NCBI GenBank assembly: GCA_013115145.1
Contig: JAAPAO010000010.1
Coordinates: forward strand, 87,611 to 151,610
Direction of reading: 5' to 3'
DNA length: 64,000 nucleotides
From: Perkinsus chesapeaki
Taxonomy: Eukaryota; Perkinsozoa; Perkinsida; Perkinsidae
Under the pieces are notes generated by a model. That model was not told where the DNA came from, searched no databases, and saw nothing but the letters and a program-made list of their open reading frames with translations. Below are positions 12,417 to 59,241 of the stretch, in pieces (within the stretch, counting starts at the first letter, position 1; each line of letters starts with the position of its first letter). Made by a program: the position numbers and the translations under genes.

Positions 12417-13541
12417 TCAGCAGGTCACATCCTGCCAGCCGCCACCAGATGGTAGTGGTCTCGGCTGCCAGAGCGGCTTAGTGGGAGTTATAATATCATT
12501 ATCTAATAGTTCTTCTGACTCTGATGATTCGGATTCACCAAGCAACAATGCAACAGACCATTTGCCGCTTCCTTTAAAAATGAGCCTCCCTGAGCGTTTA
12601 GCCTCAAGTGTCACCGGGCAAGGTTTGCCGTTCACAATGAACTCGACAATCTTGAACATTGACCCTGAGTCATCCACACCAAGTACTAGGGAAATGACGT
12701 CACCAACATTCATATCACAGACTCCATCCTGGCACAGTCGCCCTCGATCCCACTTCTTCCCCGTTGTGCTGAAGCCCACAGAATCAGCGCACTTCCTGCG
12801 AGTGGCTTCCTGCTGAACTCCGGGATACTTCACACGACATAGGCAATCCTCTGCGTTGCACTCAGTGAGCCCAAAACTCAGAATTCTCTCCAGCTCCGTG
12901 ATGCGCAAAGTCACCCTACGGGTCTTCAAGTCCTTCTTATCGCCGTTAAGGACCATTTCAATCCCTCGCCATGGAGGTATCTCTCCGCGGTAGTAAAATG
13001 GGTTCGATGATATCCTCCAAAGCCTATCATGCCGAAGCACCTCAACTGCCGCGTCTGTTCTGTAGATTGTGAGCTCGTCTGATGTCACGCTGTCGATCTC
13101 GTTAACATCCGCCGGCTGCCTTGTAGGAGAAACTTGGGGCTCACTCGGCGACCAGACCGCCGAGGGCTTTGCATCGTACCGAGTCTCGGCTTCCTGCACA
13201 GTGTACCGCCTGGCCTTGAAACCCCGGCAGAAGTCGTCAGCAGGACCCAGCAGGGGTCCAGCGCTATAGGGAGCGTCACTAATACGAAGATACCCTTGTT
13301 GAGTGGAAGTGCTGACTCGAAGGAAGAATGCACCAGAATCACAGAAAAGCATACCGACAGGATTAGCAAGGGAGAGGGACAGCATTGTGTGAGGAGGCAA
13401 CTCCACCGCTTCCCTTGTGTGTTGTAAGGCGGGGGCTGGGTAAAGCAAAGCGAGCCTGCGGGTCTGAGAGCAACTAAATAAAATCCAAAGGAGAATAATG
13501 CCTCCAAAAAGGCAGAGTGGAGATTGCCGTGACCAGAACAC
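12417..13541 (-). CDS. Unknown membrane/secreted protein with SPRY-like C-terminus
   Basis: A single open frame of 374 codons on the reverse strand. The first in-frame ATG is at 13388; the upstream part encodes a strong hydrophobic segment (LCLFGGIILLWILFSCS), so translation probably begins upstream via another exon. Residues from about 180 resemble a SPRY/B30.2 sandwich: SVGFSTTGKKW, GDVISLVLGVDDSGSMFKIV, EFIVNGKPCP, with the usual order of G-D-V-I, a long loop, and F-x-x-N-G. SPRY domains mediate protein binding. A run of acidic and serine residues (GESESSESEELLD) precedes the C-terminus. Partner and role are unknown. The stop TGA is at 12417-12419. Confidence 0.55.
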   Translation of the reverse strand: MFWSRQSPLCLFGGIILLWILFSCSQTRRLALLYPAPALQHTREAVELPPHTMLSLSLANPVGMLFCDSGAFFLRVSTSTQQGYLRISDAPYSAGPLLGPADDFCRGFKARRYTVQEAETRYDAKPSAVWSPSEPQVSPTRQPADVNEIDSVTSDELTIYRTDAAVEVLRHDRLWRISSNPFYYRGEIPPWRGIEMVLNGDKKDLKTRRVTLRITELERILSFGLTECNAEDCLCRVKYPGVQQEATRRKCADSVGFSTTGKKWDRGRLCQDGVCDMNVGDVISLVLGVDDSGSMFKIVEFIVNGKPCPVTLEAKRSGRLIFKGSGKWSVALLLGESESSESEELLDNDIITPTKPLWQPRPLPSGGGWQDVTC

Positions 13542-13617
13542 ACAATAGGAAGCGCTTCAAAGATCAATAATCCACTTATAAACCAAAATTGCACCAGCGA
13601 AGAACGCTCTGGTTTTC

Positions 13618-13890
13618 CTAACCAGATGTAACGCATCTTACCTTTAACGGTATAGCCGAGCAGGCATGCGATGGACTTCTAGATGTCGAGCTTCCCAGCG
13701 ACATCGCCTTCAACCGGCACAGGTTCTTAGTGCCGTAGTCTGACAGCTTGAGTATCACGAAGTGCTCTTGTACGTATTCAACCCATCTTGCCCGGAGATC
13801 CTGAAAGGTAACAGCAGCTCTGATAAAGTACCGGAGGCATTGAATTGCATACATGTCAAGAGCCTCCCTCAGGACTGGTATGGCTCTCAA
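13618..13890 (-). CDS. Unrecognised open stretch, possible upstream exon
   Basis: A reverse-strand open stretch with an ATG reading MYAIQCLRYFIRAAVTFQDL, followed by protein-like sequence up to CSAIPLK, where a good donor (GTAAGATGCG) occurs. It may be the 5' exon of the SPRY-like gene just downstream, but I could not connect the two in frame. No family recognised. Confidence 0.35.
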   Translation of the reverse strand: MRAIPVLREALDMYAIQCLRYFIRAAVTFQDLRARWVEYVQEHFVILKLSDYGTKNLCRLKAMSLGSSTSRSPSHACSAIPLKVRCVTSG

Positions 13891-13985
13891 ACTAATGTAT
13901 CAGTTAGGAGTAAAGTGAAGCTCGTGTCTCGAGGACCCTCTGTTTTTGTAGTAAAAACCGTAGCATCTACGTTGTGAACCACACC

Positions 13986-14014
13986 GCGTCACATCACACT
14001 CTGTGATGTGACGC
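13986..14014. repeat. Perfect 13-bp inverted repeat with 3-nt loop
   Basis: Arms 13986-13998 (GCGTCACATCACA) and 14002-14014 are exact reverse complements around loop CTC. The hairpin overlaps the stop codon of the reverse-strand gene ending at 13994. Confidence 0.95.
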
Positions 14015-14746
14015 CCTCTCGAGCCTCGGGAATTCATGGAAGGCCAAAGAGTTACAGATAAAGCAAGGATGGAGAAGTGCTCCTAGCCTCGTTGAATCTA
14101 AGCCACTCACGTAGTCATCAAGGACTGTCATCATTCTCGGATCTTCTCTAACCTTGATAACCTCAGGATTTTCCAGGACCCTAGTCCAATGTGGAGTCGC
14201 TGGATCCCCCAGGGCTACACCAAAGATAGCTTCACTGAAGAACTCTCCGACCATATCTCTGATAGATGCATTAAAGTTGCCATTTTGCCAGCCTCCTTCC
14301 CTAAGGTCCCATCCATTCTCTCTAAGGGCGCACAATGCCTCGTCGAAGCCCTTCAGAACGGCTCTTTCGCTTTGTTTCATCCAATGCTTCTCACCAGTAG
14401 TATCGAATCGTCTCAAGGTGCTATTTGTCACCAAAAGCCTCTGACCATCACCACAATGGAGAAACAGGTGGTAATGCTGGTTAGCCTCGTGCCTCGTGGC
14501 TGTTGCTTGGACGATGCCCTCGAAGCTTAGAAGCTCATCAACCCAGCGATGATTTGCGACAAACACCTTCCAATCGAAGGAGCGCCCATCGCCTAGGCTC
14601 ACTTCGTTATCGAAGGGTATATCAGATGCTTTCGAACCGTTTGTTAGGATGCGCACTGCTTTACAGCACTGCTCCCAGCTGGGCACCATGTAGGGGTCCG
14701 TGATGAACTGACGATAGTTGTCCTTACTTACAACGCTCACTGGCAT
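13994..14746 (-). CDS. Unrecognised protein, 250 residues
   Basis: An uninterrupted frame from ATG 14746 (MPVSVVSKDNYRQFITDPYM) to TGA at 13994. Trp- and His-rich, with HRWVDELLSFEG, HYHLFLHCGDGQ and a C-terminal LHPCFICNSLAFHEFPRLER. A GTAAGT site right after MPVSV and an AG 24 nt later could be a short in-frame intron, so the N-terminus is uncertain. No signal peptide or membrane segment is evident. I recognise no family; size and context resemble the other unknowns in this region. Confidence 0.55.
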   Translation of the reverse strand: MPVSVVSKDNYRQFITDPYMVPSWEQCCKAVRILTNGSKASDIPFDNEVSLGDGRSFDWKVFVANHRWVDELLSFEGIVQATATRHEANQHYHLFLHCGDGQRLLVTNSTLRRFDTTGEKHWMKQSERAVLKGFDEALCALRENGWDLREGGWQNGNFNASIRDMVGEFFSEAIFGVALGDPATPHWTRVLENPEVIKVREDPRMMTVLDDYVSGLDSTRLGALLHPCFICNSLAFHEFPRLERASHHRV

Positions 14747-15263
14747 TATTTGAATAATAAAACTAACGATTAGTTGTAGTATAATTGCCTTCTTCAGCAG
14801 ATTTCGATAAAGTTCCCTCAGCGATCACAAACGGTGTGCTTAAAAACAAGTCTGCCGAAAGTCAACCACAATATCTTAAAATTCCGAGGGGGACTTTACG
14901 GGAATTTCCCCAAAAAGCAAATCCAAATTATTGCACGAACTCCTTCACTTTAATGTCGGATTTACGCTTGCAATCACCATCAACATCGCCATCTCAATAT
15001 CACTTCACATTAATAATATCGTAGAGCTTTGCAGCGACATTCCTGATGCTAAATACGAAGTCCTCGTCCTTCTACGGCGGCGGCCGATGGCTTAGAACTA
15101 CTCCAATGGAGACACTAGACTAATATGTTGCGATGTGTGAAACAAGCAGCCCTCGAATGGTAGTGGAGATTCCACACTGTGGAACTGTAACAAACAACAA
15201 ATGTAAAGTAAGAAAATATGAGACACGTCTAGTGATGAGAATTCATGAGCAGGCGGTCATGCT
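14747..15263. other. Intergenic, nothing convincing
   Basis: About 515 bp between two reverse-strand genes. The forward open stretch 14785-15024 lacks an ATG start. Probably promoter of the 14.0-14.7 kb gene and 3' UTR of the transporter. Confidence 0.4.
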
Positions 15264-18200
15264 TCAAGATATCTTTTCCTCTTTCTTCTGCTTACGACTT
15301 GAAGAGGTATATAAAAGAGTGCCGGACAACACCAATGTGACACCTGTGAGCTTTCCAGGAGTTAGAGCTTCGTCGAACAAATACGCACATAGGACCATCT
15401 GTACCTACGACAACTACTAGGCGAAAGAAGATCAAATATAGCAGTGACATACCACAGGTGGCCGGAGACGGGGCTGGAATGGGATTTATTGCACTAAAAT
15501 TTTTACGACGGATTTGAGTTCTCCAATGTTCTAGGATCTTAAAACTGTATAGCTTAACGTCTGGGGTGACTGCGAAGAAAAAATACAGCACGTCTAAAAT
15601 TTGCGCACTTTTTGCGCGCAAAATGGGGGTCGCAGGCACGAATCCCACCCAGGACATTTTTAAAAACTCACAATCTCAGTAGCCAAAAGACTCCATGGCT
15701 GACATATATGATATTATAGAGCCATATCAAGTACCCAGAAAAATCACCAGAGCAGGACCGAGAAAAAAACTCGACCTGTCGGCTGTAGCATGAATCGTGT
15801 AATAAATAGGTGAGCACCGCCTATGTAATCCGTGCTAGCTCCAACTTGGGAGTGGTGCAACCTCCAAACAGTCTCTCTTTCCTCGCGCTCAACACCCTCG
15901 TTTCCTATTACATCCAATAATGTTTCTGAAGATCCCGGAAAAAATTGTGAAGACGGCTGATCCTCACCATATTGACAACCTTTACCGTGTTTGCCGCTTC
16001 TGCCATAAGCGAGTGACGTCATCGAGGGGTAAACCTGTCGGCTCCCCAGGCAAGAAGACCTGCGACAGGGCTAGCCGTTTTTATAATATCGACTTTAAGC
16101 GCGAGATCACAACCACACTACTACCCAAGATCCTATGCAAGGGTTGCACCCGACGCCTTACCCGGTTTGATTCGCAACCTGATACATACGAAGCATGGAA
16201 CAGGGACGAAAGATGCTTCGTTGATGCTCTGGCTTTCGATGCTGACGGAGTGGCTACTCGTAGTAAAGCATGTACACAAGGAACTCCTTGTAAGGTTTGT
16301 CAGATTGTCTCCAATCGTGAGTCGAACCAGTTGCAGGCAAAGCGCTCGGATGCTCGAAAGCCAGGCAGGCCACTGGAGCAGTCTCCACCAAAACCTATAT
16401 GCAAGAAGTGTGGTCTAGATTGGTTCGACCACGATAGTGTGACCTGCAGGCGAGTTATGAAGAGACCTGCTCATGCTGCTTTGGCGGGACGCCTATTCGG
16501 TGAACGAGTGGCGGCTAGAGGCTTTACTAAGCAGCTTGTGCAGGAGCACTTGCGTGACCAGTTCACTTCCGAAGCCGGTGGATTGAGCTGTTCTACAACG
16601 CCTCAGCGCTCTGGTGTGAAGCTCAACAGTCATGAGTATCTAGGTATCACTCCGGCTCGCTACGACAATTCCTCTCCTGGCTTGTACATTTCTACCGACT
16701 CTGCTAGAGACCTGCTAAGGCTAGGTCATCTCGGTCTCGGCAAGAACAGTGCCCGCCGGTTGTGCACTATTCTTGCCCGCGAGGGCATCTACTTTCCAAA
16801 TGGAGGTCTCGAGGCATGCAGAAGCGAGCAATGGGTGGTGTTTGGTCGTATATTCCGCACCGAGGACCTTATCCTCGAAACTGACCGGCAAGCGGCTTCT
16901 TGCAAGGCTTGCAATGCAAGCACCCCTGTCCTTTCTGCTTGTGGTCTAAGGGCACTCGGTGTACTGGGCAGCCTCCGAATGGCAGAACGTGGGCCCTCCA
17001 TCAACATCACCTTGCGGACCGTAAGTACAGTGTGGTGAACGAGCCAAGTGTACAGTGGGATGGTTCTCCCATGGAGGTCCTTTCATTGGCACCCTTGCAT
17101 CTGCTTTTGGGTATCACTAATAAGGTGTTCAAGGAGGTGTGTGATCTTGAGTCGGACAGCTCGCTTGCTAAAAAGCAGAAAGCTGCCTTGCTCAAATATG
17201 GTATTAAGCGTTCGGCTTACTTCCAGGGTGATCTTCAAGGCAACGAATGTGCACGCCTTCTAGACGCCGTTGCTAATAATAAGGTCCCTTTCCTGCGTGG
17301 GAAACAGCTGAGGTTGAAGGTGAAATGCTTGCAAAGCTTGAAGGTTGTCAAGGACAAGTGCTTGGGTCTGGTGAGAGTCGATGGTTGGGATCGGGCTATT
17401 CATGACTTCCGGGAAGCATGGGAAGCGAGCGACTTATCCTGGACACTGAAGGTTCACATACTGTGCGACCATGGCATTGAGTACCTACGGGATTTCGAGA
17501 GCGACAATGCTGCTGGCTTGGGGCTATCTTCCGAGCAGTCCGGCGAGTCATTGCATGCCAGGCTCCAGCGGATCTGGGATATGAGATTTCGAGTAAACCC
17601 CGAGAACCCCCTCTTCGGCTCTCGCCTGACCGACTGCATGGTCGCCTACAACTGGAGCCTGCAGTGGGATGAAGGTGGACGACTGCGACGCTCAGGCCAG
17701 CAAACGTCCAGCAGCGACTGCAACACTACAAGCTGCAGCGGAGTTTCGGGTATGGAGCATCTTTCCGAGCTGTCCTAGCTCCTGTAATTTTTTTATAACA
17801 TCTCACAGTTGCTTCGTGATATGTAGTAGCCTCTGAGTTGTCAATAGACCCGGTTTTGGAGGACTTCTTAAAAATGTCCTGGGTGGGATTCGTGCCTGCG
17901 ACCCCCACTTTGCGCGCAAAAAGTGCGCAAATTTTAGACGTGCTGTATTTTTTCTTCGCAGTCACCCCAGACGTTAAGCTATACAGTTTTAAGATCCTAG
18001 AACATTAGAGAACTCAAATTGGTTGTAAAAATTTTAGTGCAATAAATCCCATTCCAGCCCCGTCTCCGGCCACCTGTGATACGGGACAACTGATTGGTAG
18101 GAAAAATATACAACTTCAGTTTTCAATGAAAACGCCTGCAACAAAGTTTATATAGGAATGTATACAACATTGCCAGTTCGCTCGAAATGCATCTATGCCA

Positions 18201-20590
18201 CACCACATGGAGTAGCATTAATGAGCAGAATGAAAGGAGGCATTGCTTCGGGTTTAGGATACTTACCCCTCCTCTAAGTGCTGACACAATGCTATAGGTA
18301 ACAGTTGATGTAAATGTTACTTGTAGTACAACAGCTAAGTTGAATAGAACAGCCAGTAGAGCTGAAAGAAGGCATTGAGAGACTGACAGCAGCAGCAGTA
18401 GCAGCATTGCTAGTTACTGATTAGAAAGACTCTTATCATATATGAAATGTCAAAGGCGAGGTTTACAAGGGACGATTCGGCGTCAATGTAGATGAACGGC
18501 AGGCCCAAGAGTGTATACCTGATAACACAGAAATCAGTTGAAAGCCACTTCACACTGTACAGGTCATCAGTGTAGTAGGGTTTACAAAATGATAGGACTG
18601 AAGAGTGATGTTAAGGTAGCTTTCGGGTTCCTTAAGTGGCTCAAACAACGTACCGAATCCCTCACCGAAGGGTCACAACTGCTAACAACGGCGAGCCGGC
18701 CTCAAAAAAGCCACCAACACTCCGTCGAAGCTGCTTTACTTACTGCCAACATCAACATTCTATGTACTCATATGCTACTGAAAGTATAATGTGCGATAGT
18801 GTAATAACAACCACCACCAGCATCTTGTCTATATAACTAATCTCGATCTATAACGTATCTCTACGATACAGTAGCGCGGTGGAAGAAGTACACAATGGCT
18901 CTACGATGCATTTCACAGTGCAGTAGATCATCATCCCGCAACTGAAGTGCGCGCCAACGATAACCTCGCCAAATTTCAGGCTAGCAGCTGTTGCAGCCAC
19001 CGTTTAACTCACGCAGCATTAGTAATAAACACTGTATCAAGAGGACTCAGGGGCTTTATATTGTCTTTTCCATCATTTCCTTTATTGACATCGGCTAACT
19101 TAATAACCAATGTGTGCACGGCAGTGACTAGCGAGGCCAGAAAACCCTGAAAATTGAGATAGGCCGATCTTGCAGCATAGATAGTGCCCGCCGCGGATGG
19201 AGCCCAGATGGACGTATGACTCATATAGGGGCAAAGAAAGTCGAAAAAAAGTAGTAAGAGGTTATATTTACATATCGCAACTCAAGCAACAATGGCTACT
19301 TCCGCGCGAAGATGACAACATAAAAGCCTTCCTGAAACTCCACGGGGAAGATGCATTCAGGGAGAGCTGATAATGCTGTATGAAAGGTGATGGCTCCCCG
19401 GAGGCTTACAAATAGCGCACCAGTCGCGGACACGCTGATCTTGTCGAACACAACAGTAGACATGAAGCCGGCTGTGACAAGTAGGCATCCTAGAATCTGA
19501 TAAAGGATGCGACACGGGCTGTTGGCCACGACATGACCGACTGGCAATCCTGCAGTTGTCTGGGAATGTTTTGGTAGAAAGAGCCAGGACAGGACCACCG
19601 ACATAGGAGTGTTCAGCGCACGCGCCACAACCTGACAGAAGTGCCAGCCGAGAGACAGGCGCTGCGCCTACTTGGAAGCTACTAGCATCAACCCGCATCA
19701 AGCATAACGAAGCGAAGACCAAGCTCATAGAGTTAACAATACAGAGGTCAAACGACTGATAGAGCAGCTGCTAAAGGCAGCCTCGAAGGGGATAGTATGG
19801 TACTTTAAACAGAGCCTTAACGAACACACTCGGCGATTGGGATACTGTGAGTCCCATTGGAATAGCTTTATCTGAGGAGGATACATTAACTGCTGTAACT
19901 GTGGTTAGAGCGTACTAGCTGTCAACAGGCAAATAACTGCCAATACTGATTGGAGCCATAAGGACAGGAATGGTACGGCCTGAAAGCTGCGAGCTGATAC
20001 ACCAAAGATGCCTTCTGCTGCTGGAGCAGTAAATGTAGAGCATGCGAGGAAATACCGTGAACGCATTACCAGAATTGACGTTATAACAGTGCGTGTTCAA
20101 CCAGGGAACGCATTAAATCACTGTTATTCATTGTGCGCCGCTCGTTCCCTTGTACATGCGTGCACAGCTAAATCCCCCTGCGAATGTAAGCTGAATAAGA
20201 AGAAGCCTTTGTAGACTCCCTTCTCGCCTTGTGTTCGTCTATATGAACGAGGAACAAGCAACAGCCACTAAATGTCCCCCCTGGAATCTATCTTCGGGTT
20301 CAAGGAACGTATTATCCATAATATCCACACCGCTACTAGGTGGATCTAAGTGGATCAGGACCAGACTTACATATAGGTCAAGGGTAAGCTTATTAGCAAC
20401 AACCATAAGGATGGCACAGGAGGCATAAAAGGAACTAACTCCGACCACTTTAACTTCTTCACCAAGTATACCAGCATTAGATGAACAAGCTAAACAACTT
20501 ATAACCATTCTGATCAAAGGGCATTTACTTACCGACTCCCGAAGGCTTTCGGAGCTCTTCTAATGTATTATCCGGATGTGATACTGTCAT
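15264..20590 (-). CDS. Nucleotide-sugar-transporter-like protein (SLC35/DMT), last intron carries a transposon
   Basis: Multi-pass transporter of the drug/metabolite superfamily, expected in Golgi or ER. From ATG 20590 (MTVSHPDNTLEELRKPSGV) the exons give an early helix SSFYASCAILMVVANKLTL, FLLIQLTFAGGF, a later VPFLSLWLQSVLAVICLLT, ALNTPMSVVLSWLFL with GCLLVTAGF, a loop helix FLASLVTAVHTLVIKLADV, and FNLAVVLQVTFTSTVTYSIV leading to SALRGG at 18267. After a 2862-nt intron the final exon (15404-15264) reads VQMVLCAYLFDEALTPGKL and ends with a helix (GVTLVLSGTLLYT) and a lysine-rich tail. Both borders of that intron are phase 0 and canonical. Middle exon borders (19.2-20.2 kb) are not all resolved. 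Substrate cannot be told. Confidence 0.8.
15453..15666. repeat. Left terminal inverted repeat
   Basis: Matches the reverse complement of 17866-18078 with only a few mismatches. Includes a GC-rich core with the run TTTGCGCGCAAA and a B-box-like GGATTCGTGCC on the complementary strand. Confidence 0.92.
15920..17778 (+). CDS. Transposase-like protein of the 15.4-18.1 kb element
   Basis: From ATG 15920 the frame encodes an N-terminal Cys4-type module (CRFCHKRV, then ILCKGCTRRL), a second Cys/His module (CKVC, PGRP, CKKCGLDWFDHDSVTC), and a middle region. The frame then switches. A 62-nt GT-AG segment at 16845-16906 would join VVFG to LQCKHPCPFCLW in the second frame, which continues to TAG at 17778; an indel is the alternative. 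The C-terminal part has LAPLHLLLGITNKVFKE, FQGDLQGNECARLL, and SEQSGESLHARLQRIW. I recall a similar order (PCPFC, L-H-L-L-L-G, G-N-x-C, E-Q-x-x-E-x-x-H) in DDE-type transposase-like proteins of animals. The stretch before PCPFC looks short compared with those, so the enzyme may be internally deleted. Confidence 0.75.
17866..18078. repeat. Right terminal inverted repeat
   Basis: Reverse-complement partner of 15453-15666. High similarity between the arms suggests recent activity. Confidence 0.92.
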
Positions 20591-20956
20591 TAAAATGGAC
20601 TGCAGTTAAGAGTTCTACAACACTATGCGGCTTCCAAGGCCTCCTAGGATATTAAACTGTAGAAGATGTAAGAGTGTCCCATTACACATCTACTTCCCTT
20701 ATCAGTTAACAACCAGCACTAACGGTGGTACTGACTGGCAGTGTTGAGGGGTATTTTACAGTGTACTGTGGAGTATACGCTAAATCTCTGTAACTAATTT
20801 CGCTATCTTTTTAACTATGATATCCGGCAGGAACATTAGTCTCATTTTCACCTGGTATTGATGAATGTACTTTGTTGGATACGAGCCGGCATGTCTGCTC
20901 ATATGGTATCTCATAATAAACCATCCCTTCTTATTCAACCCTTATCTTTGACATAA
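20591..20956. other. Intergenic, nothing seen
   Basis: Upstream of the transporter start. An AG lies about 10 nt before the ATG on the reverse strand, compatible with a trans- or cis-splice acceptor. Confidence 0.4.
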
Positions 20957-21165
20957 CTAACTCAACTCCTCTAACCACTTCGAAAGCTCTGAAATATCCT
21001 GCCGTAGTAGTAGCATCATCACCTTCTTGTAGCTGGTATACCCAATGGCTCCATCATACCGGCCTTCCTTAAAGCCCAGGGGATGAAACGGACAGATACT
21101 AGAAACACTGATGCCACTCTAAAAAGAATAACAACATATACACATCTTCTACGAGCCAGTGACAT
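20957..21165 (-). CDS. Small unrecognised protein with a 23-nt intron
   Basis: ATG 21165 (MSLARRRC), then a GTATAT...TTTTTAG segment of 23 nt whose removal opens a frame reading SGISVSSICPFHPLGFKEG, then YDGAIGYTSYKKVMMLLLRQ and ISELSKWLEELS before TAG. About 61 residues. Plausible but not supported by homology that I recognise; the unspliced frame is also open and hydrophobic. Confidence 0.35.
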
Positions 21166-21866
21166 CGTGGCGACCACAGAGATACACAATCGGCAACAGC
21201 AGGAGAAGGCAAACATACATAAAAAGACGAAAGCCGATGAATGGAGACTAAGTAGGTGAGTAACAAACAACAATATAATACTATATGGTTCTATATATCA
21301 TACACTACTATTATCAAATGTAGAGGTTGATATTCACAATATTATATTCAATAACAAACTGCCAATTCATTTATGTAATACACGTCCTATATAAAATAAA
21401 TAGTATAAACGTGTGAGAGAAGTCTAATAAGCACTATTATGGATAACAGGCATCCCAACATAAGTTACACCGTATTAGCTGCTGCCTACTGAACCCTACG
21501 TAGCTTTACCAACTATCTTACTGTATTTTGTAAATAAATTCCTTCTTGGCATAATCCTCAGGTTTGGCTACTCCACCACCACCACCTGTACCAGCTGCTG
21601 CACCGCTTCGCTTAAGATTCCACATAGTATGAGGGACAATACGATAACAAACTGAGGGACAACAACAGACATTTCGAAAGAAGTCAACACAAAGCGAACC
21701 ACCGAGGAAACCCCTCACAATAAGCCATGCGTCTTCAGCTGCTGGTTACAATGATGATGATGCTGCAATAGGATGGCCACCCACCTCCACCTCTACCAAT
21801 GACCACTAGCAATAATACCATTTATTAATTATTCAGTAGTAGTAAAGCTATGTACAAAATATGTAA
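21166..21866. other. AT-rich interval without an assigned gene
   Basis: Contains a reverse-strand open stretch (21518-21718) without a firm start and GTG/GAT triplet runs. No RNA gene seen. Confidence 0.4.
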
Positions 21867-24442
21867 CTATGATGCTGCGAACTCTTCCCCTGAAAAAGAG
21901 CATTCCAGCCGATACACTTTATCTAACCGACCAAGGCCCTCTGCCACGGGTGGCAGCATCTCCTTAGTCCGACGAGATTCCATCTTCTTCCTATTTCGAA
22001 CCTCCTCCAGTTCCTCCTGTAAGTTACCTATCTTCTGCTCTATCAACATAACCTAAGTACACTATAGTGACAGCTTAGGATAAATACATTGATTAAGGCT
22101 TTAACATTATCCGGAATAACGAAGCCTCGAATAGCAAATGCTATCCAAATGCCCACCTATTCCACCCCTCAAACATATCGGTGGCCAGCGAGTAGATCCA
22201 CTCCACAGCGGCACAAGATTTATGTTCAAATGACAAAGGCGACCATAAATTTACATTAGTGTAAGAGTGGACTACCAGAATAGTAGCCTCGAAGAGAATA
22301 AACAGACCGTATATATAAACTGCATTCAACACTACTCTATGCCACCTACTACTATCAACCACCACACCGCCTATATCTATTACACCACCACGAGCAGCCC
22401 CTAGCTCCTCCTCCTCTTTACTACTACTACCTGATGCTTGAGCTCAAACAATGCTGTTATCATAGTATCCCTCTTCTTAGGGTCCCATCCAATAGATCCC
22501 TTCTCTTGTGTTTTGGTCGAATCTATGGAAACCATTCAACCCACCAGCATCAGCAGTGCTACCACTGCCACTGTTCTCCGCCTGCTGTAGGATATCCTCG
22601 TACTTCGATTTCATGTCCACAAAAGCCTCCTCGTCCCCGCCTAACCAACCAATATCTTCTAAAATACCACAACCTCCCTCTAACCTTTATCAGGATGCAG
22701 CTCCCTTGACTTCTCCTTATATGCCTTTTTCAGCTCAGCAATGTCACAGTTCTCATCCAGCCCAAAGAAAGCAAAGGCGCTCAAGCCTATCAAATCTCCT
22801 CTACCATCTCCTTGATAGACTCGCCATCACCTTTAGCTTCTTTGATTTCCCTTTCAACATCCTCTAAATGCCTTCCTTTCTGCCTCACATGAGATGCTAC
22901 CACTTCCAATACATTCCTTAACCCAACATCTGTAAGGTCCGTCGTCCACCTATATCCACTTATACCTTATGAATAACAAGCAGCCTCTTCTTCAAGTACC
23001 TCTCAACCTCATCCTTCCCACTGCTTAACAGCCACTTCAACGCTATACTAATAGGCACTTCCATGTTACTACTATTCTTAGGGGCATCCTTCACAGGTGA
23101 TATAACTAGGCTACCGCCGCTACCCTCATCATCCTTGTCACCATCATCAGTGACATCACCGTCCATCACTACCTGACCAACGGTTATATGACTATTGATA
23201 TTTGAAACGAATGTCAACATATCACAACAAATCTACTAGGAAATACCACCACTAAGGTACCTTATATACGCTAATACATATCAAAATCCATTTCATCGTA
23301 CCCCTTACTTCATCATCATCCTCCTCATCCTCCAAAGGTTCCCCATCCACGCCCTCCTCCTCCTCTTTAATAGGATCACCACTACTTACACCTTCACACC
23401 TCGTACCATTACTACTATAATCAGATACTCCCTCAATACGGGTAGGTGAACTGCTACTACCGTTACCCCTACTATCATCCTTAACAGGAAGAGGAGGAGG
23501 AGGAGGTGAGCAGCACCCAGCGCCAACACCCGGGACAACCTGGCCCACACTGCTCATGACCCTGACCGACGCAGACGTGTTAAGGCCACCACCGCTCAAG
23601 CCAGCGGCGGGGGCTTCAGTCGGTCTAGGCAAGCTGTAGGCTGGCAGGCCGCTGTAGAGGGTCTTGCTATCATAATAACTCTTACTCGTAGGGGATGGTC
23701 GTGATGCCTAATAAAAATTACCTTTCATACCGACTTTCCCACAAGCACTACAAGATTGACACTAGAGGCGCTGCTGCCGAGCCCCACTGGACGGGTCTGT
23801 ACACCAGTGCTGGCTATGTAACCCAGACAATCACGGCCAGGCAATACTGGTGATACTGGAGGGAAGTTACTAAGTCATCCCATCAGCATCAACCACCAAG
23901 TGAGACCTACCTAATAGAGCTGCCCATCACAGTGAAAGCTGTACTAGCAGCCCCAGGCATTTGGGGCCAATTGGTGCCTCGTGTAGGCGACTGGGATCTA
24001 TAAGTACCCGAAGAAGCCATCGTATGTAATACTGCTGTTGCTGCTTTTGGGGTATAAACGTTACTATACAATAGGCTATATCACTAAAGCTCTCCCTACC
24101 TACTTCGGTGCTCCACTAGAAGGGCTTGGCGAACTCTTAACAACAGTTCTAATAACTCTCCGAACGACAGGAGGAGCAGGATTCCCGACACTGCCCGATG
24201 CTCTACAATGGACGCCGCCAACATACAGCCCTTAACCGCGGCTTACCTGCTCGCTGTGGTGTCGCTAGTGGCACGAACAGTACTAGTCCTCAATGGCGAC
24301 ACCGATCGACCACCAAATACTGTGGCCGCTGGGATACCAGCCTCACCGGTGAAGCTTCTGGCCTACCATGAATGATAGAAGAGTAGATGAGAGAGCGGTA
24401 TGGCACTTGTTGGGTGCTCCAGCTCGTCAAGTCTTGAACCAT
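21867..24442 (-). CDS. J-domain (DnaJ-type) membrane protein
   Basis: Hsp40-type co-chaperone. Exons from ATG 24442 (MVQDLTSWSTQQ) encode a long Ser/Pro/Gly- and acid-rich N-terminus (for example VFGGRSVSPLRTSTVRATS and IKEEEEGVDGEPLEDEEDDD). The J domain follows near 22.6-22.8 kb: FGLDENCDIAELKKAYKEKS, then the HPD motif in RELHPDKG, then GGDEEAFVDMKSKYEDIL. HPD is the Hsp70-stimulating loop. A hydrophobic segment (VYIYGLFILFEATILVV) comes after it, and the C-terminus is a coiled coil (IEQKIGNLQEELEEVRNRKK) ending at 21867. Introns are short, one apparently 23 nt. The order low-complexity/J/TM/coiled coil suggests a membrane-tethered J protein; location is unknown. Confidence 0.82.
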
Positions 24443-46897: not shown

Positions 46898-47129
46898 ACG
46901 GACGACCACTACGACTAATAACAAATGTAACTACAATACTGGAAAAACAACAACAGCTTAATCCCTACCACTCTTCCGCCAGATCCCATAATAACACGAC
47001 ACTTCGCTCGCCCACCTGCACGAAAATGGAAACCACTATGGTCCAACAATTGCACTATCATCCTTATCATTGAACGTTCCAAGAGAGCCATCGCCTCGGC
47101 AAGTGCCAAGCCTACCAATTAGGGGTAGT

Positions 47130-48797
47130 ATGAGAGGAGGATTTGACGGAAAGTTGGTATCGATTGAAGACGCGGAGCTGAGGCTTGGCAGACTGAAACG
47201 GGAGAATGCCCTTTTGCAAAGACAACTAGGAATCTTGCTCGCCGCCAAAGCAGTAGGGGATCTACATAACCATATATTGGAAAGGAAGCAAAGACCAGAG
47301 CCTGAGGAATATATTAATAGAATGGTCAACGAGCTTAGCGGAGCGATGCTGCAGCAGAAGAGGAAGGGAAAAATAAAGTCCACTACTAGAGACAGAAGTG
47401 GAGAGCAACATCGAAACAAAGACGATAGTACTGAAATAGAAGACAATAGAAATAGGTCGAAAGATACTTCTAGTAAGAGAGATGGTCATAGAGGGAGGTC
47501 GAAAGATACTTCTAGTAAGAGAGATGGCCATAGAAGTAGGTCAAAAGATACTTCTAGTAAGAGAGATGGCCATAGAAGTAGGTCAAAAGATACTTCTAGT
47601 AAGAGAGATGGCCATAGANNNNNNNNNNNNNNNNNNNNNNNNNNNNNNNNNNNNNNNNNNNNNNNNNNNNNNNNNNNNNNNNNNNNNNNNNNNNNNNNNN
47701 NNNNNNNNNNNNNNNNNNNNNNNNNNNNNNNNNNNNNNNNNNNNNNNNNNNNNNNNNNNNNNNNNNNNNNNNNNNNNNNNNNNNNNNNNNNNNNNNNNNN
47801 NNNNNNNNNNNNNNNNNNNNNNNNNNNNNNNNNNNNNNNNNNNNNNNNNNNNNNNCAAAAAGATACTTCTAGTAAGAGAGATGGCCATAGAAGTAGGTCG
47901 AAAGATACTTCTAGTAAGAGAGATGGCCATAGAAGTAGGTCAAAAGATACTTCTAGTAAGAGAGATGGCCATAGAAGTAGGTCGAAAGATACTTCTAGTA
48001 AGAGAGATGGCCATAGGAGTAGGTCGAAAGATACTTCTAGTAAGAGAGATGGCCATAGAAGTAAACATGAGCGGCGAGAGGAAGAACTTGTGGAGCAGGA
48101 AAGATCCTCGTCGAGTAATGAGATACCGGTGAGGCACGCAGACGATAGGCGAGTAGGAGTGGCAGACCTTATGGGGCATTTAAAAGATAGAATGGCTAAG
48201 GTGAAGGATAACAAAGATGTCAGGCCTTTGAAGAATGATACTAGCAAACTCGAGGGTAGGAGGAGACACCGGTCAAAAATGACGGACAGGCCCAAGCGAC
48301 ATAATAAAGGGAGGTCGAAGGCAGCTGAGAGAGAAGTAGCAATTGTCGAGGAACCCCAAGCGACCTTCAGGGAATCTAATGAAGCCGCGTCGCACTCTAA
48401 ACTGGATTGTGACCTGAAGAGCGGGACAGAACAGGGGACAACTATAGTCGATCGGTTAACCGATATAGCATCTTCACTCCTCCCGAGTAGTCGTTATCCA
48501 GCCCAACCTACAGCACAGGATATGCCCTCTAATAACGTTCCTGACTATGGGCCTCAACAAACCAAAGAGGATGCGCTTAAAGTTTCATCGCAAAAAGCGA
48601 GCAACGCGGTGACTGCTCCACCAGTGGCACGTCACATCGAACGACACGACCTTCCCTTCATGCCGGACTTACCACCATTCAAGCCAGGTGAATTTACAAT
48701 ATGGAAAGAAGAGCAAGCCCGGAAAGCTATGATACGAGCAAGAGCGTTGGCCTTAGCCGGAAATAAGAAAGGAGAATCATCATCCGACTCTGATTGA
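47130..48797 (+). CDS. Protein with tandem 13-residue KDTSSKRDGHR repeats
   Basis: Forward frame from ATG 47130 (MRGGFDGKLVSIEDAELRLG) to TGA at 48797. The frame is open upstream to 47070 without an ATG. The N-terminus forms a coiled coil (LGRLKRENALLQRQLGILLA). Then a 39-bp unit encoding RSKDTSSKRDGHR repeats from about 47452 to 48060, interrupted by an assembly gap (47619-47855). The C-terminus is conserved-looking: DLPFMPDLPPFKPGEFTIWK, then EEQARKAMIRARALALAG and an acidic Ser tail. Highly basic and Ser/Arg-like, so a nuclear RNA-related role is possible. No family recognised. True repeat number is unknown because of the gap. Confidence 0.7.
   Translation: MRGGFDGKLVSIEDAELRLGRLKRENALLQRQLGILLAAKAVGDLHNHILERKQRPEPEEYINRMVNELSGAMLQQKRKGKIKSTTRDRSGEQHRNKDDSTEIEDNRNRSKDTSSKRDGHRGRSKDTSSKRDGHRSRSKDTSSKRDGHRSRSKDTSSKRDGHRXXXXXXXXXXXXXXXXXXXXXXXXXXXXXXXXXXXXXXXXXXXXXXXXXXXXXXXXXXXXXXXXXXXXXXXXXXXXXXXQKDTSSKRDGHRSRSKDTSSKRDGHRSRSKDTSSKRDGHRSRSKDTSSKRDGHRSRSKDTSSKRDGHRSKHERREEELVEQERSSSSNEIPVRHADDRRVGVADLMGHLKDRMAKVKDNKDVRPLKNDTSKLEGRRRHRSKMTDRPKRHNKGRSKAAEREVAIVEEPQATFRESNEAASHSKLDCDLKSGTEQGTTIVDRLTDIASSLLPSSRYPAQPTAQDMPSNNVPDYGPQQTKEDALKVSSQKASNAVTAPPVARHIERHDLPFMPDLPPFKPGEFTIWKEEQARKAMIRARALALAGNKKGESSSDSD
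47452..48060 (+). repeat. 39-bp in-frame tandem repeat array with gap
   Basis: Four units are readable before the gap and about five after it, with almost no sequence variation. The unit encodes 13 residues (RSKDTSSKRDGHR). Confidence 0.95.
47619..47855. other. Assembly gap (237 N)
   Basis: All N. It lies inside a near-perfect tandem array, so its size is likely an estimate. 237 is a multiple of 3 but not of 39. Confidence 0.99.
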
Positions 48798-53851: not shown

Positions 53852-55317
53852 ATGGATGAATTGTCATCACACTACAGCTTAAACAATAGTATCTGTCTAG
53901 TGTGTGATCATCATCATCATGTACAATTACCTAGAAGTCTACTTCAACAACTACTGATACATGATGATGATATCATCATCATCTTTGGTAGCAGCAGCAG
54001 CAGTAGTATCATCGTTATTGTAAGGCTATCGCTAACCATCTCGTCGTCGTCGTCATTGTCGACCAGGATAGCTGTAGCTAACAGCAGCAGTTGATGATGG
54101 CGGCAGTGGTATAGCTCAATAACTTGATGATTACTAATGATACTTCACAAGTACTGTGCATATTTGTCACGCTCCTTAATTTGACTACCGTCATCATCAT
54201 TATTCTCGCTGCTAATTCCCACCTTCTGTTGTTATTGCCACTGTGATGGTCGTCCAAGCCTAGCTCACAGCCCCACCACCACCATATCGCTTGGTTATCA
54301 TTATCACAACCCTCGTCAGTCCTCCTGCTCCTCGATCTCACTGTATTATCTCAAGCAGTAGCTTGTAGTATTTGGGAGAAGTTCATATTAACCCGTATGG
54401 GCCACCGCCATATTCAGCAAGTATTGCTGCGACTACTGCCAGCGTTGGCAGCACCAGCAATAGTTTGCTTACAAGATAGAAGGTCCCATACTATTGAGGA
54501 GGATGATGACGATGTTGTTGAACTGCCACTGATTTGGAATGGTAATCATTTAACTTCTCTCTTGTGTGAAAGATAAAAACCCTTTGAACAACAACAACAC
54601 TCAGTGCAGCTTCTATGACATTTTTCAGTGTTTAGTTTATACAAGTGTGCCATCTAATAACACATTCTGATAACAAACTAAACCCTATAAACCTGATAAC
54701 CGCCGTCAACTGCTATTCATTAACTCCATGTTGGACCGTGACGCAGCGCGACTGGAGCCGTGTCCATCCTCATGAGGCCTCAAATCGAATAATTGCTGAG
54801 GTTGATAGCGGAATTTGGGCAATGGTACACACCATAACAGGCTGGTACTTTTCCATCTCTATCGGTCACGCAATGAGAGGCTTCGAAAAGTTTGCGTGAG
54901 ATCGCGTGCTTAAAACGTGATTTGTGCTACCGAAGGGACAGCACAACACAAAAGTATATAAGCTATGGGCCCCCACTAGGTACTCACTTTGAATATCTTA
55001 AAAATCTAATAATCGCTACCGGACTCAGCACGTACAAAATAGCAGCACAGCAATACACAGTTGATCCAAGGACACGCTGGGACGGAAGCTTATAGGACCA
55101 AGGCGGCCGGTTCGTACAATAAACGTTGTGAGATCCTTCGGGTATGTCGGGAGTATGTCGTATCAAGTTTGCTGTAGCCTAGCCGAAGGTTTGAGTGTGT
55201 AGGATGTGCCGTGTATTCCGGTATATTGAGGTGGGGCTCTCAGGGCCGTCGCTGCTCCGTTCACATCTAGATTAACATTATTGTGTCAGCCTTATTATTT
55301 TCGCTCTTTCTTTCCCA
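53852..55317. other. Triplet-repeat stretch and uncertain open frames
   Basis: 53.85-54.35 kb is rich in ATC/GAT and GCA runs. A short forward frame near 54380-54475 reads INPYGPPPYSASIAATTASV. Another at 54892-55095 (IACLKRDLCYRRDSTTQKYI, ending TRWDGSL) looks protein-like but lacks an ATG. No gene is called. 55.1-55.3 kb is the putative promoter of the first GH18-like gene. Confidence 0.35.
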
Positions 55318-56594
55318 TGTATAACCCTATCAAGACCATTGCCCTCACAGTTGTCGCTTTTACATTGCTGAACAGAGCTGGAGCTAATGCATCCCTCCGA
55401 GGCTTGAGTTCCTGCCTTACTACTGGAGATGCTTTCTGTCAAAATCCACAAGTTCAAGGGCCTGGTTCCTATTGCACTACTAACTCTCATGTATGTCACG
55501 GTGGGGTTATACCTTGTAACTGTGTCGATGCAAGTGAAGATCAGTTGTCTAAGTTACTTGGCGGTGGTCATGTTGTCAATGAAGTTGTTACTAAAGGCGC
55601 CGCTCCTCGACAGAACACGGCTCGTGTACTCACGCATCAACCTCCGAAAGCTTCGGCTAGAGTGGACGGTTCCTTCATGTGGGTTGAGTTCCCTGAGATC
55701 TATGATCTGAATGCTCTTAGTTCTTATTACGATAAGATCTACAATCATATTATGGGTAATCAGATTGGTATGGGATACAGTCAAGTGGTTGTACGTGTTA
55801 CAACTCCTGATGATGCTCTTACTGGTACCAGGAGCTCTCCCCTTTATACCCACTTGCTTAACCGAATTGCTGGAAAGATGCAAGTTCTCTGCTACCCCGA
55901 TGTCACCACCAACCACGGGAAGCGCGACCAATGGGTAGCCGCCTCCCCTATTGGATCTTTCCTTGACGGTGCTATCCAATATGCTGCTCGAAATGGTGAT
56001 ATCTTCACCGGTGTAGTCTATGATACCGAGGAGTTTACAGGCACCCCGTCCTACAATAAGCTGCTGAATAACGACAACTCTGAGATCAGAATGGCAGCTT
56101 CTGAAGGACTAACTACAGCTTTAACTTGTGGCTTCGATGAAGTCACTCGTCCTGATAATCGCGGTTCTAAGTTCCTCAATACCGTCGATCATTTATATCT
56201 TCAGATGTATGACTTCTACAACAACGCTGGTAAACCTATTGCTAGCTCTCCCTCCTCGACGCCTTTCGTCACTCACCAGAATGACGCCAATGGTATGTAT
56301 AACTACCTTTTCAGCGGTAAGAGTGATGTGAAGGCCGTCAAGTACACCGAGTCCTCGTATACTAAATACTCTCAACAAGGCAAAATCTCCATGATGTGGT
56401 CTACGTCTTTCAATACGTCTCCGGACTGTATTCACCCCCTGAATGGCCAGTGCGGCGATACTAAAGCCCATTACGAATTCGGCGTGTGGGAAGGCTCGCC
56501 TTTTGTGTCATTCCTTGCCAACGTGAAGGGCTCGTATCCGCAGGCTCCTCAGGGTGTCATGCAATTTGCCTTTATGCCCAAAAGCTGGGAGTAA
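55318..56594 (+). CDS. Secreted GH18-like protein, copy 1
   Basis: Intronless, 425 residues from ATG 55318. Signal peptide (MYNPIKTIALTVVAFTLLNR), then a Cys-rich module (SSCLTTGDAFCQNPQVQGPG, SYCTTNSHVCHGGVIPCNC), a short linker, and a TIM-barrel-like domain: MWVEFPEIYDLNALSSYYDK, DGAIQYAARNGDIFTGVVYD with TEEF, and HLYLQMYDFYNNAG. The D-x-E in VVYDTEEF at the end of a strand and QMYDFY later fit the GH18 (chitinase) scaffold, but the first Asp residues of the canonical D-x-x-D-x-D-x-E are replaced. It could be an active hydrolase or a carbohydrate-binding relative. A close paralogue lies 2.65 kb downstream. Family call is by pattern only. Confidence 0.65.
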
Positions 56595-57978
56595 ACTATC
56601 TTCACTTCACAGTCATTTGACTATCCTTTCGTGCTTCAAGTATTGACGGTAAAGACCTACTTGTTAACAACTGCACTGCGAACGAACATCTATTGCGACT
56701 TCTAAACCGAACATTGTAAGCTCGGTTGATTATGAAGCGCTTTCTAGTTTCGGCGGCAATCGATCGTCGAAACGCATTTTTCCCTTTGTCACCTTGGTGT
56801 CATTGCCTACTGTCTCGATGGTTTGTGATCCTTGTTATCACTCACCCGATTTAACGATAAGCCTGCTTTTTGTAAGCTTTGTCGTCCTTTTCACTCGTTT
56901 GCTATTGGTCATGTAGGAATCGTTCCCGTCGATACTTGTGATCACGCTAAACTTAAACTATCTACATACTATCTGTATGTAGACTTGACAGAGTTCCTTA
57001 TTTTGGAAATCTCTTTCTGCTTATTATTTGTAGGTTTGTTCGATTTGGCTATTCGCAATAATGCTTTGCGGTTAGCAGTGGTTAGAGATTGATAGTGCTT
57101 CAGGCGGCTCTGCTTTCAGGGTGTGATACTGTTGTTACCCTTCGCCAAATGCATGATACTATGCTTTCTCTGGTATAATCCTTTCATTCCTTATCATTTG
57201 ATAACCGAGCGCTTAAATAGTGAAGTCTATTCAATAGACCCATCTCTTATGAGAGTCAGCTACGCTGGCGATCATCGTATCGTGCCCTGTGTACTGTATG
57301 TTCCTTATCTTGAATAGTTACTTACTGTTCTTCCTGTATTAAGTTATAAAGGTTGATGAGACCACGGTCACTGGCGTGTTGTGTTACTTAGTTGACCTTA
57401 TGTAGGTACCGTACAATACACCCTTGCGACAACAAAACTAAGGATAGTGTATTGACGCCAGCCAAAAAGATATGGTCCAACAGGTGGCACCTTAAGCTGT
57501 CAAACACATGAAAGGAGCTACACAAGGGTCGTACCTAAGGGAAACAATCGCGAAACGATTTTTACACAAACCTTGCAGCTCCACAGTGGAGCCTCCACTG
57601 ACCGAGCTAAGCGACACAATAGTACAGTAGCTCCTATTTCCTACACTAGATAGGAGAGACCAACAGTCGAGTCAGTTACGATCAGTATTCTCCACGCGAT
57701 GCCGATACCTGCACACTGCATCGTGTAGCGAAGACTCCTGCAGCACCAAGGAAGCGGAAACGACGCTTATTATTCAAGGACACAACTGCCTGCAGGATCA
57801 CTGTTATATTTGTGTCCGCATAATTATAGCGCTAGTGTCACCTTGAGTACTAGCCTCGGTGTCTAGCGTCATCTCAAACTCGTTAATCATAACCAAGTGA
57901 GGTTGCTGTGGGATGGTCTCTTCAACAACATTGCTTTAATCTTTTCTTTCGTTAGTTTGTGTAGTTTCTTCTTCTTAA
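56595..57978. other. Long spacer between the GH18-like paralogues
   Basis: About 1.4 kb with no convincing gene. Two forward stretches (56832-57092, 57123-57317) start at non-ATG codons; the first is hydrophobic. Not obviously similar to the region downstream of copy 2. Confidence 0.4.
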
Positions 57979-59241
57979 ATGCGCAGCTCTTCCACCGTGC
58001 AGTTTCTCCTTATATCTGTTACTACTGTGCTTACCGCACAAGCTACTATGCTACGTGGGTTGAGTTCAACGTGTCTTACAACTGGCGACGAGTTCTGCCA
58101 AGATACTCGAGTACAAGGTCCAGGCTCGTATTGCACAACGAACTCTAATGTATGTCACGGTGGTACTATCCCTTGCAGTTGCGCTATATCAGCACAACAA
58201 CAGCTGCAAGATTATTTAGGTGGAAACGGTGGTAACGACGACAACGAAGAAGTCGTCGGTTCAACTACAAAGGCTGCGCCGAAACCTGAACCTCCAGCAC
58301 CATCTTCTAAGGTGGACGGTTCCTTCATGTGGGTTGAGTTCCCTGAGATCTATGATGTGAATGCTCTTGGTTCTTATTACGATAAGATCTACAATCATAT
58401 TATGGGTAATCAGATTGGTATGGGATATAGTCAAGTGGTTGTACGTGTTACAACTCCTGATGATGCTCTTACTGCTACCAGAAGCTCTCCCCTTTATACC
58501 CACTTGCTTAACCGAATTGCTGGAAAGATGCAGGTTGTCTGCTACCCCGATCTCGGCTCTGATAGCAAGCGCGGTCAATGGACTGCTGCTTCGCCGATGG
58601 GGTCTTATCTGGACGGTGCTATCCAATATGCTGCTCGAAATGGTGATATCTTCACCGGTGTAGTCTATGATACCGAGGAGTTTACAGGCACCCCGTCCTA
58701 CAATAAGCTGCTGAATAACGACAACTCTGAGATCAGAATGGCAGCCTCTGAAGGACTAACTACAGCTTTAACTTGTGGCTTCGATGAAGTCACTCGTCCT
58801 GATAATCGCGGTTCTAAGTTCCTCAATACCGTCGATCATTTATATCTTCAGATGTATGACTTCTACAACAACGCTGGTAAACCTATTGCTAGCTCTCCCT
58901 CCTCGACGCCTTTCGTCGCTCACCAGAATGACGCCAATGGTATGTATAACTACCTTTTCAGCGGTAATAGTGATGTGAAGGCCGTCAAGCAAACTGAGTC
59001 CTCGTATGCTAAATACTCTCAACAAGGCAAAATCTCTATGATGTGGTCTACCTCCTTCAACACCTCTCCGAACTGCATGAAGCCCTTGAATGGACAGTGC
59101 GGTGACACGAAGGCTCATTATGAGTTTGGTGTTTGGGATGGTGTACCGTTTGTTGATTTTGCCAGCAAGGTCAAGGCTGATTACCCGAATGCTCCGCAGG
59201 GTATCATGCAATTTGCCTTTATGCCTCAGAGTTGGGAGTAA
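57979..59241 (+). CDS. Secreted GH18-like protein, copy 2
   Basis: Intronless, 420 residues from ATG 57979. Signal peptide (MRSSSTVQFLLISVTTVLTA), Cys-rich module (TCLTTGDEFCQDTRVQGPGS, NVCHGGTIPCSC), a linker differing from copy 1 (GGNGGNDDNEEVVGSTTKAA), then the same barrel-like domain with VVYDTEEF and LYLQMYDFY. It ends FAFMPQSWE. Nucleotide identity to copy 1 is very high in 58312-58540 and 58618-59030 but much lower in the signal peptide, linker, the LGSDSKRGQW segment and the last 200 bp. This gives a patchwork of shared and private parts. Confidence 0.65.
   Translation: MRSSSTVQFLLISVTTVLTAQATMLRGLSSTCLTTGDEFCQDTRVQGPGSYCTTNSNVCHGGTIPCSCAISAQQQLQDYLGGNGGNDDNEEVVGSTTKAAPKPEPPAPSSKVDGSFMWVEFPEIYDVNALGSYYDKIYNHIMGNQIGMGYSQVVVRVTTPDDALTATRSSPLYTHLLNRIAGKMQVVCYPDLGSDSKRGQWTAASPMGSYLDGAIQYAARNGDIFTGVVYDTEEFTGTPSYNKLLNNDNSEIRMAASEGLTTALTCGFDEVTRPDNRGSKFLNTVDHLYLQMYDFYNNAGKPIASSPSSTPFVAHQNDANGMYNYLFSGNSDVKAVKQTESSYAKYSQQGKISMMWSTSFNTSPNCMKPLNGQCGDTKAHYEFGVWDGVPFVDFASKVKADYPNAPQGIMQFAFMPQSWE

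What the first reader, a model, noticed from the sequence alone, without database searches (positions are those of the whole stretch)
15264..20590. DNA transposon lodged in the last intron of a transporter gene
The SLC35-like frame stops at a GTAAGT donor (18266) after SALRGG and resumes 2.86 kb away at an AG acceptor (15405) with VQMVLCAYLFDE, phase 0 to phase 0. All but about 230 nt of that intron is one mobile element with its ATAC target duplication. The element runs opposite to the host gene. Introns here are usually 20-50 nt, so a 2.9-kb insertion tests how splicing tolerates size.
Basis: partly seen in the sequence, partly recalled or inferred. Interest (0 to 1): 0.75.

Follow-up and report, generated by a model that had tools for sequence, protein, structure and literature searches.

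The report
Dead transposon inside a transporter intron
In a clam parasite, a jumping gene that has lost part of its own cutting enzyme sits inside the last intron of a sugar-transporter-like gene whose coding parts still fit together; this is mostly ordinary, but it shows how a gene can stay readable after such an insertion.

Summary
The window is Perkinsus chesapeaki (contig lengths and record names). On the minus strand my 11-exon, 353-aa model of an SLC35/UAA-like transporter gene runs from 20590 to 15264. Its last intron, 18266-15405 (2862 nt, phase 0), holds one DNA transposon, 15453-18078 (2626 bp), with inverted ends identical at 210 of 217 positions and ATAC on both sides. The exon beyond it supplies the missing last part of the UAA profile in register, so splicing across the element is strongly implied; no transcript was seen and no orthologue of the junction was found. 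The element has termini, flanking duplication and motif order of the CMC/Transib ("CMCT") clade and looks Chapaev-like. It is a defective copy: about 111 residues with the two presumed catalytic Asp are missing. Public protein FOL47_000130 skips the last four exons and fuses the gene to a frame beyond the element. Long introns are known in Perkinsus, so the "test of intron size" is somewhat overdrawn. The 217-nt arms could pair in the pre-mRNA and shorten the effective intron to about 236 nt: an untested idea.

The parts
15264..20590 (-). SLC35/UAA-like transporter gene, 11-exon model, 353 aa
   Evidence: residues 1-190 identical to FOL47_000130 (P0010); Pfam UAA below cut-off
15405..18266 (-). 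last intron, 2862 nt, GTAAGT..TAG, phase 0
18267..18382 (-). exon 10, ending SALRGG (acceptor 18382 or 18361)
15264..15404 (-). exon 11, VQMVLCAYLFDE... to the stop codon; last part of the UAA profile
15453..18078 (+). internally deleted CMCT/Chapaev-like DNA transposon, 2626 bp
15453..15669 (+). terminal inverted repeat, left arm
17862..18078 (-). terminal inverted repeat, right arm, 210 of 217 identical to the left arm
15449..15452 (.). flanking duplication ATAC, left copy
18079..18082 (.). flanking duplication ATAC, right copy
15839..17038 (+). transposase frame 1, with an N-terminal Cys-rich domain (CRFC...LC..C)
16885..17778 (+). transposase frame 2, with CPFC, H(4)H and SSEQSG; the stretch with FDGG and CDLK is missing between the frames

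Best explanation
A cut-and-paste DNA transposon of the CMC/Transib clade, probably Chapaev-like, inserted at an ATAC site in a last intron of about 232 nt in an SLC35/UAA-type transporter gene of Perkinsus chesapeaki, antisense to the gene. It lies 188 nt from the donor and 48 nt from the acceptor, so both splice sites and the pyrimidine-rich stretch before the acceptor are untouched. The transporter mRNA is most likely still made by ordinary cis-splicing that removes the element with the intron. Shown here: gene model, termini, flanking duplication, homology in register across the junction, and the deletion in the transposase. Inferred: that the RNA is spliced, that the intron existed before the insertion, that this copy was moved in trans or lost its core after landing, and that the transporter works.
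For: ATAC on both sides of termini that the family's other copies define. Continuous 353-aa model with GT and AG at all ten introns. The UAA match runs across the junction and vanishes if exon 11 is removed or replaced by intron read-through; exon 11 alone matches UAA 277-310 with 15.7 bits; 0 of 7 scanned other in-phase continuations match UAA. Similarity to P. marinus P0001 stops at residue 95 and resumes at 207 with no room between, and the skipped part holds FDGG (from 125) and CDLK (from 195).
Against: No RNA evidence. All Pfam scores are below cut-off: UAA 22.1 bits for exons 8-11 and 15.5 for the whole 353-aa protein, against 26.2. A search for relatives of residues 185-353 scored 1892 candidates and found none at E<=0.001, so no orthologue confirms the junction. 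The public gene model does not use exons 8-11. No empty site could be looked up. The search of solved structures gave no match for the transporter.
Confidence: 0.82

Rival explanations
1. The element blocks splicing: transcripts are retained or end inside the intron, giving a transporter that lacks its last segment and carries a 47-residue tail read from the intron.
For: Frame 0 of the intron is open for 47 codons from the donor; one AATAAA/ATTAAA on the host-sense strand of the element; the public model stops using the gene's own exons after exon 7.
Against: The tail gives no Pfam match, while exon 11 keeps the UAA register and an open frame to its stop codon.
Confidence: 0.1
2. The gene is now split: exon 11 is an SL trans-splice acceptor site with its own ATG 6 nt further on, giving a separate 44-aa peptide.
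For: GTACAG-ATG follows the acceptor, open for 44 codons; Perkinsus species have spliced-leader RNAs (PMC3101222, passages).
Against: A lone last segment of a transporter has no obvious use, and the homology continues in register from exon 10.
Confidence: 0.04
3. The element is an introner: it brought the intron with it.
For: Flanking direct repeats and inverted repeats, as described for Amoebophrya introners (PMC7789003, passages).
Against: Its ends are 188 and 48 nt from the splice sites, and the splice sites lie outside the duplication.
Confidence: 0.02

Closest known systems
CMCT clade of DDE transposons (EnSpm/CACTA, Mirage, Chapaev, Transib, Plavaka, ESTA, Lanisha; with RAG1), as described in PMC12730594 (passages)
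   Same: CAC...GTG termini, 4-bp flanking duplication, and in the relative P0001 the order D, D, C(2)C, H(4)H, E
   Different: This copy lacks both Asp; a profile of the family matches no solved chain at E<=10
Chapaev transposons (Chapa zinc finger shared with the RAG1 N-terminus; PMC4411706, passages)
   Same: N-terminal Cys-rich domain CRxC...LC..C in 6 of 6 aligned pieces, one of which has lost one Cys; CAC ends; 4-bp duplication (4 bp for Chapaev is recalled, from no call)
   Different: No Chapaev protein was at hand for a direct comparison; the Pfam zf-AD match is weak (3 of 6 members, best E 0.0096)
Introners of Amoebophrya (PMC7789003, passages and sections 5 and 10)
   Same: Intron with flanking direct repeats and inverted repeats able to form a hairpin
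   Different: Arms are 217 nt, not 8-20 nt; canonical splice sites outside the element; transposase sequence inside
SLC35/UAA nucleotide-sugar transporters (Pfam PF08449; also TPT PF03151, EamA PF00892)
   Same: Last part in register across the junction; the uniref name of P0010 begins 'Sugar phosphate transporter dom'
   Different: All scores below Pfam's cut-offs; likeness to SLC35C1 is by eye and from memory only

Membership tests
CMCT clade transposon | 5'-CA..TG-3' termini (in most cases) | tested here: met
   CACAGGTGG...CCACCTGTG in the window; 9 of 12 other TIR-bearing loci also begin CAC, 3 do not
CMCT clade transposon | target site duplication of 2-5 bp | tested here: met
   ATAC on both sides
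[quoted passage not shown]
   by motif order only: P0001 has FDGG 125, CDLK 195, PCPFC 214, HILSDH 389, SSEQSG 413; the window copy keeps CPFC, HILCDH and SSEQSG. Which residues are catalytic was not tested
CMCT clade transposon | all three catalytic acidic residues, in this copy | tested here: not met
   P0001 residues 96-206, with FDGG and CDLK, have no counterpart in the window; this makes the copy defective and does not bear on its ancestry
Chapaev | Chapa (RAG1-N-like) zinc finger | tested here: inconclusive
   Cys pattern conserved; zf-AD weak; no RAG1 chain matched
Chapaev | place in a transposase tree, or a RAG1-like fold | tested here: inconclusive
   No tree was made; the AlphaFold model of P0001 was poor, mean pLDDT 49, so no fold search was run
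SLC35/UAA transporter | Pfam match at the curated cut-off | tested here: not met
   UAA 22.1 bits against 26.2, TPT 16.3 against 30, EamA 17.1 against 28.2 for exons 8-11; hence called SLC35/UAA-like
Introner | element ends at or beside the splice sites | tested here: not met
   ends lie 188 and 48 nt away
Introner | many similar copies as introns in many genes | not tested
   no annotation of the genome was held; whether the other copies lie in genes was not looked at

The most novel reading that the evidence does not exclude
The long inverted repeats make the insertion splice-neutral: in the pre-mRNA the two 217-nt arms pair, loop out about 2.2 kb and bring donor and acceptor to an effective distance of about 236 nt, within the range of this gene's other introns. 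In a lineage tuned to short introns, the length of the inverted repeats would then help decide which transposons survive in introns.
Probability: 0.12. Interest if true: 0.55.

Novelty: new member of a known kind. Interest (0 to 1): 0.3.

Why it matters
It corrects a public gene model (FOL47_000130 looks like a chimera of two genes), describes a CMCT/Chapaev-like transposon family in Perkinsus with a Cys-rich N-terminal domain that recalls RAG1, and offers a clean natural case (one element, one intron, exact flanking duplication) for asking whether long inverted repeats help a short-intron spliceosome cope with a kilobase insertion. Transposons in introns are common in eukaryotes (recalled), so the event itself is not surprising.

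Tried and rejected
Structure: the relative P0001 was modelled (collected) at mean pLDDT 49, so no fold search was made. Solved structures: a profile of the transposase alignment matched nothing at E<=10; frame 1 matched two rhizopuspepsin sequences at E about 0.8, taken as chance; the transporter matched nothing at E<=0.1. A tblastn search of phage records with frame 2 was empty. The search for relatives of the transporter's residues 185-353 found none. 184 nt of the donor-side flank and the 494-nt intron each matched only themselves in the genome (that search skips very common words). No tandem repeats in 14000-22000.

Considered and rejected: introner origin (ends not at the splice sites); assembly join (exact duplication at family-defined ends argues against it, reads were not seen). 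TIR divergence was not used as a clock, because the arms need not be identical at insertion.

Control: of 75 in-phase continuations of at least 44 codons, 73 lie outside the exon-11 region; 9 were drawn at random, 2 dropped because they overlap a third, 7 scanned (cut to at most 60 residues, on their own); some of the 7 still share one open frame. None matched UAA; one gave CED4_WHD at E 0.094.

Papers. Searches: (none found); (Perkinsus with CMC names, three of five terms) listed 7 papers, none with the word Perkinsus. These searches do not show that the element is unreported. Passages read: PMC4411706, PMC12730594, PMC9860276, PMC3101222, PMC3558436, PMC7789003 (of the last also sections 5 and 10). 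None read whole; others seen as listings only.

Full report
Where the window comes from. Contigs C2 (the window), C41 and C701 of the window's genome have 151,610, 66,485 and 15,084 bases. Public proteins FOL47_000130, FOL47_001461 and FOL47_009974 of Perkinsus chesapeaki lie on contigs of exactly these lengths. The window is therefore P. chesapeaki, an alveolate parasite of clams (host recalled).

The host gene. On the minus strand I built an 11-exon, 353-aa model from 20590 to 15264, with GT at each of ten donors and AG at each of ten acceptors. Its first 190 residues are identical to FOL47_000130 (P0010), which guided the exon ends there. Intron lengths are 43, 391, 44, 48, 40, 45, 263, 494, 35 and 2862 nt. 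The acceptor of exon 10 is uncertain (18382 or 18361). After exon 7 the public protein continues at 13463 in another frame of the minus strand, so it skips exons 8-11 and the element. Exons 8-11 match Pfam UAA (22.1 bits), TPT (16.3) and EamA (17.1), each below its cut-off, and each alignment runs across the long intron's junction. Without exon 11, or with intron read-through in its place, the UAA match is gone; exon 11 alone keeps 15.7 bits at profile positions 277-310. Seven other in-phase continuations, drawn from 73, gave no UAA match. Against this, no relative of residues 185-353 was found, so no second species confirms the junction.

The element. The inverted arms 15453-15669 and 17862-18078 agree at 210 of 217 positions, and ATAC stands on both sides. 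Of 16 genome stretches fetched, 12 carry TIR-like ends by blastn; 9 of these begin with CAC where the similarity starts, 3 do not, and the bases just outside differ, which fixes the ends. In a search for the first 20 bases with up to 5 mismatches, only the window showed two ends; the other stretches showed one or none. A 4-mer match at this spacing occurs at 0.47% of places in the window.

The transposase. Two plus-strand frames, 15839-17038 and 16885-17778, overlap in different phases. Residues 8-95 of the P. marinus relative P0001 match window 16661-16909, and residues 207-479 match 16903-17721 (its coordinates less 87,610). The 111 residues between hold FDGG (from 125) and CDLK (from 195), presumed to carry the first two catalytic Asp. 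The window copy keeps CPFC, H(4)H and SSEQSG. Of five other loci scanned for motifs, three keep both a DGG and a CDLK motif; several matches hold stop codons. This copy therefore should not make a working transposase; it was moved in trans or lost its core after landing. The motif order, CA..TG ends and short duplication fit the published description of the CMCT clade (PMC12730594, passages). The N-terminal Cys-rich domain, aligned in 6 pieces (the window and 5 of the 10 other matches), recalls the Chapa/RAG1 N-terminal zinc finger (PMC4411706, passages). The tools did not confirm this: zf-AD weakly in 3 of 6 members, no RAG1 chain, a poor model.

How it most likely works. The element lies antisense in the intron. 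Its host-sense strand has no GTAAGT and one GTRAGT, against 1 and 2 on the other strand: few strong cryptic donors, on small numbers. The 48 nt before the acceptor are free of element sequence and hold a pyrimidine-rich run. Ordinary splicing is the simplest outcome. As a duplex the two arms reach -407.8 kcal/mol against a mean of -114.4 for 20 shuffles of one arm; this says only that pairing is possible. In Amoebophrya, inverted repeats in introners are said to produce hairpins that allow exon borders to join (PMC7789003, passages).

How unusual the size is. In Perkinsus genes studied with cDNAs, introns range from 39 to 1622 bp, most under 100 (PMC3101222, passages). In the P. marinus annotation the median is 49 and the longest 11,034 (PMC7789003 Table 1). 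At 2862 nt this intron is longer than the cDNA set but within annotated lengths.

Verdict. A real, well-delimited insertion of a defective copy of a CMCT/Chapaev-like transposon, most likely into an existing last intron. It is a new member of a known kind. Interest is modest and rests on the gene-model correction and on the testable hairpin idea.

Noticed in passing
window 12417-20590 (-): Public protein FOL47_000130 (538 aa) looks like a chimera: exons 1-7 of the transporter joined to a frame from 13463 downward across about 6 kb that holds four transporter exons, the transposon and another open frame.
   Followed up: yes
window 13994-14824 (-): 276-aa open frame between the transporter and the 12.4-13.5 kb frame, also skipped by the public model; not identified.
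   Followed up: no
window 21019-21745 (-): Upstream frames (MWNLKRSG..., ASVFLVSVRF..PWALRKAG) resemble the start of P. olseni protein P0011, which goes on into the transporter: gene order seems kept between the species, and the two are fused in that record or form one longer gene.
   Followed up: partly
window 46995-48797 (+): Repeat protein (KDTSSKRDGHRSRS units) with a run of unknown bases inside the repeats.
   Followed up: no
window 55230-59241 (+): Two very similar frames (454 and 420 aa) in tandem, probably a duplication.
   Followed up: no
protein hits P0006 and P0008: Relatives of the transposase on unnamed ENA contigs of 372 kb and 270 kb, 47% and 45% identical; the organism is not given.
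   Followed up: no
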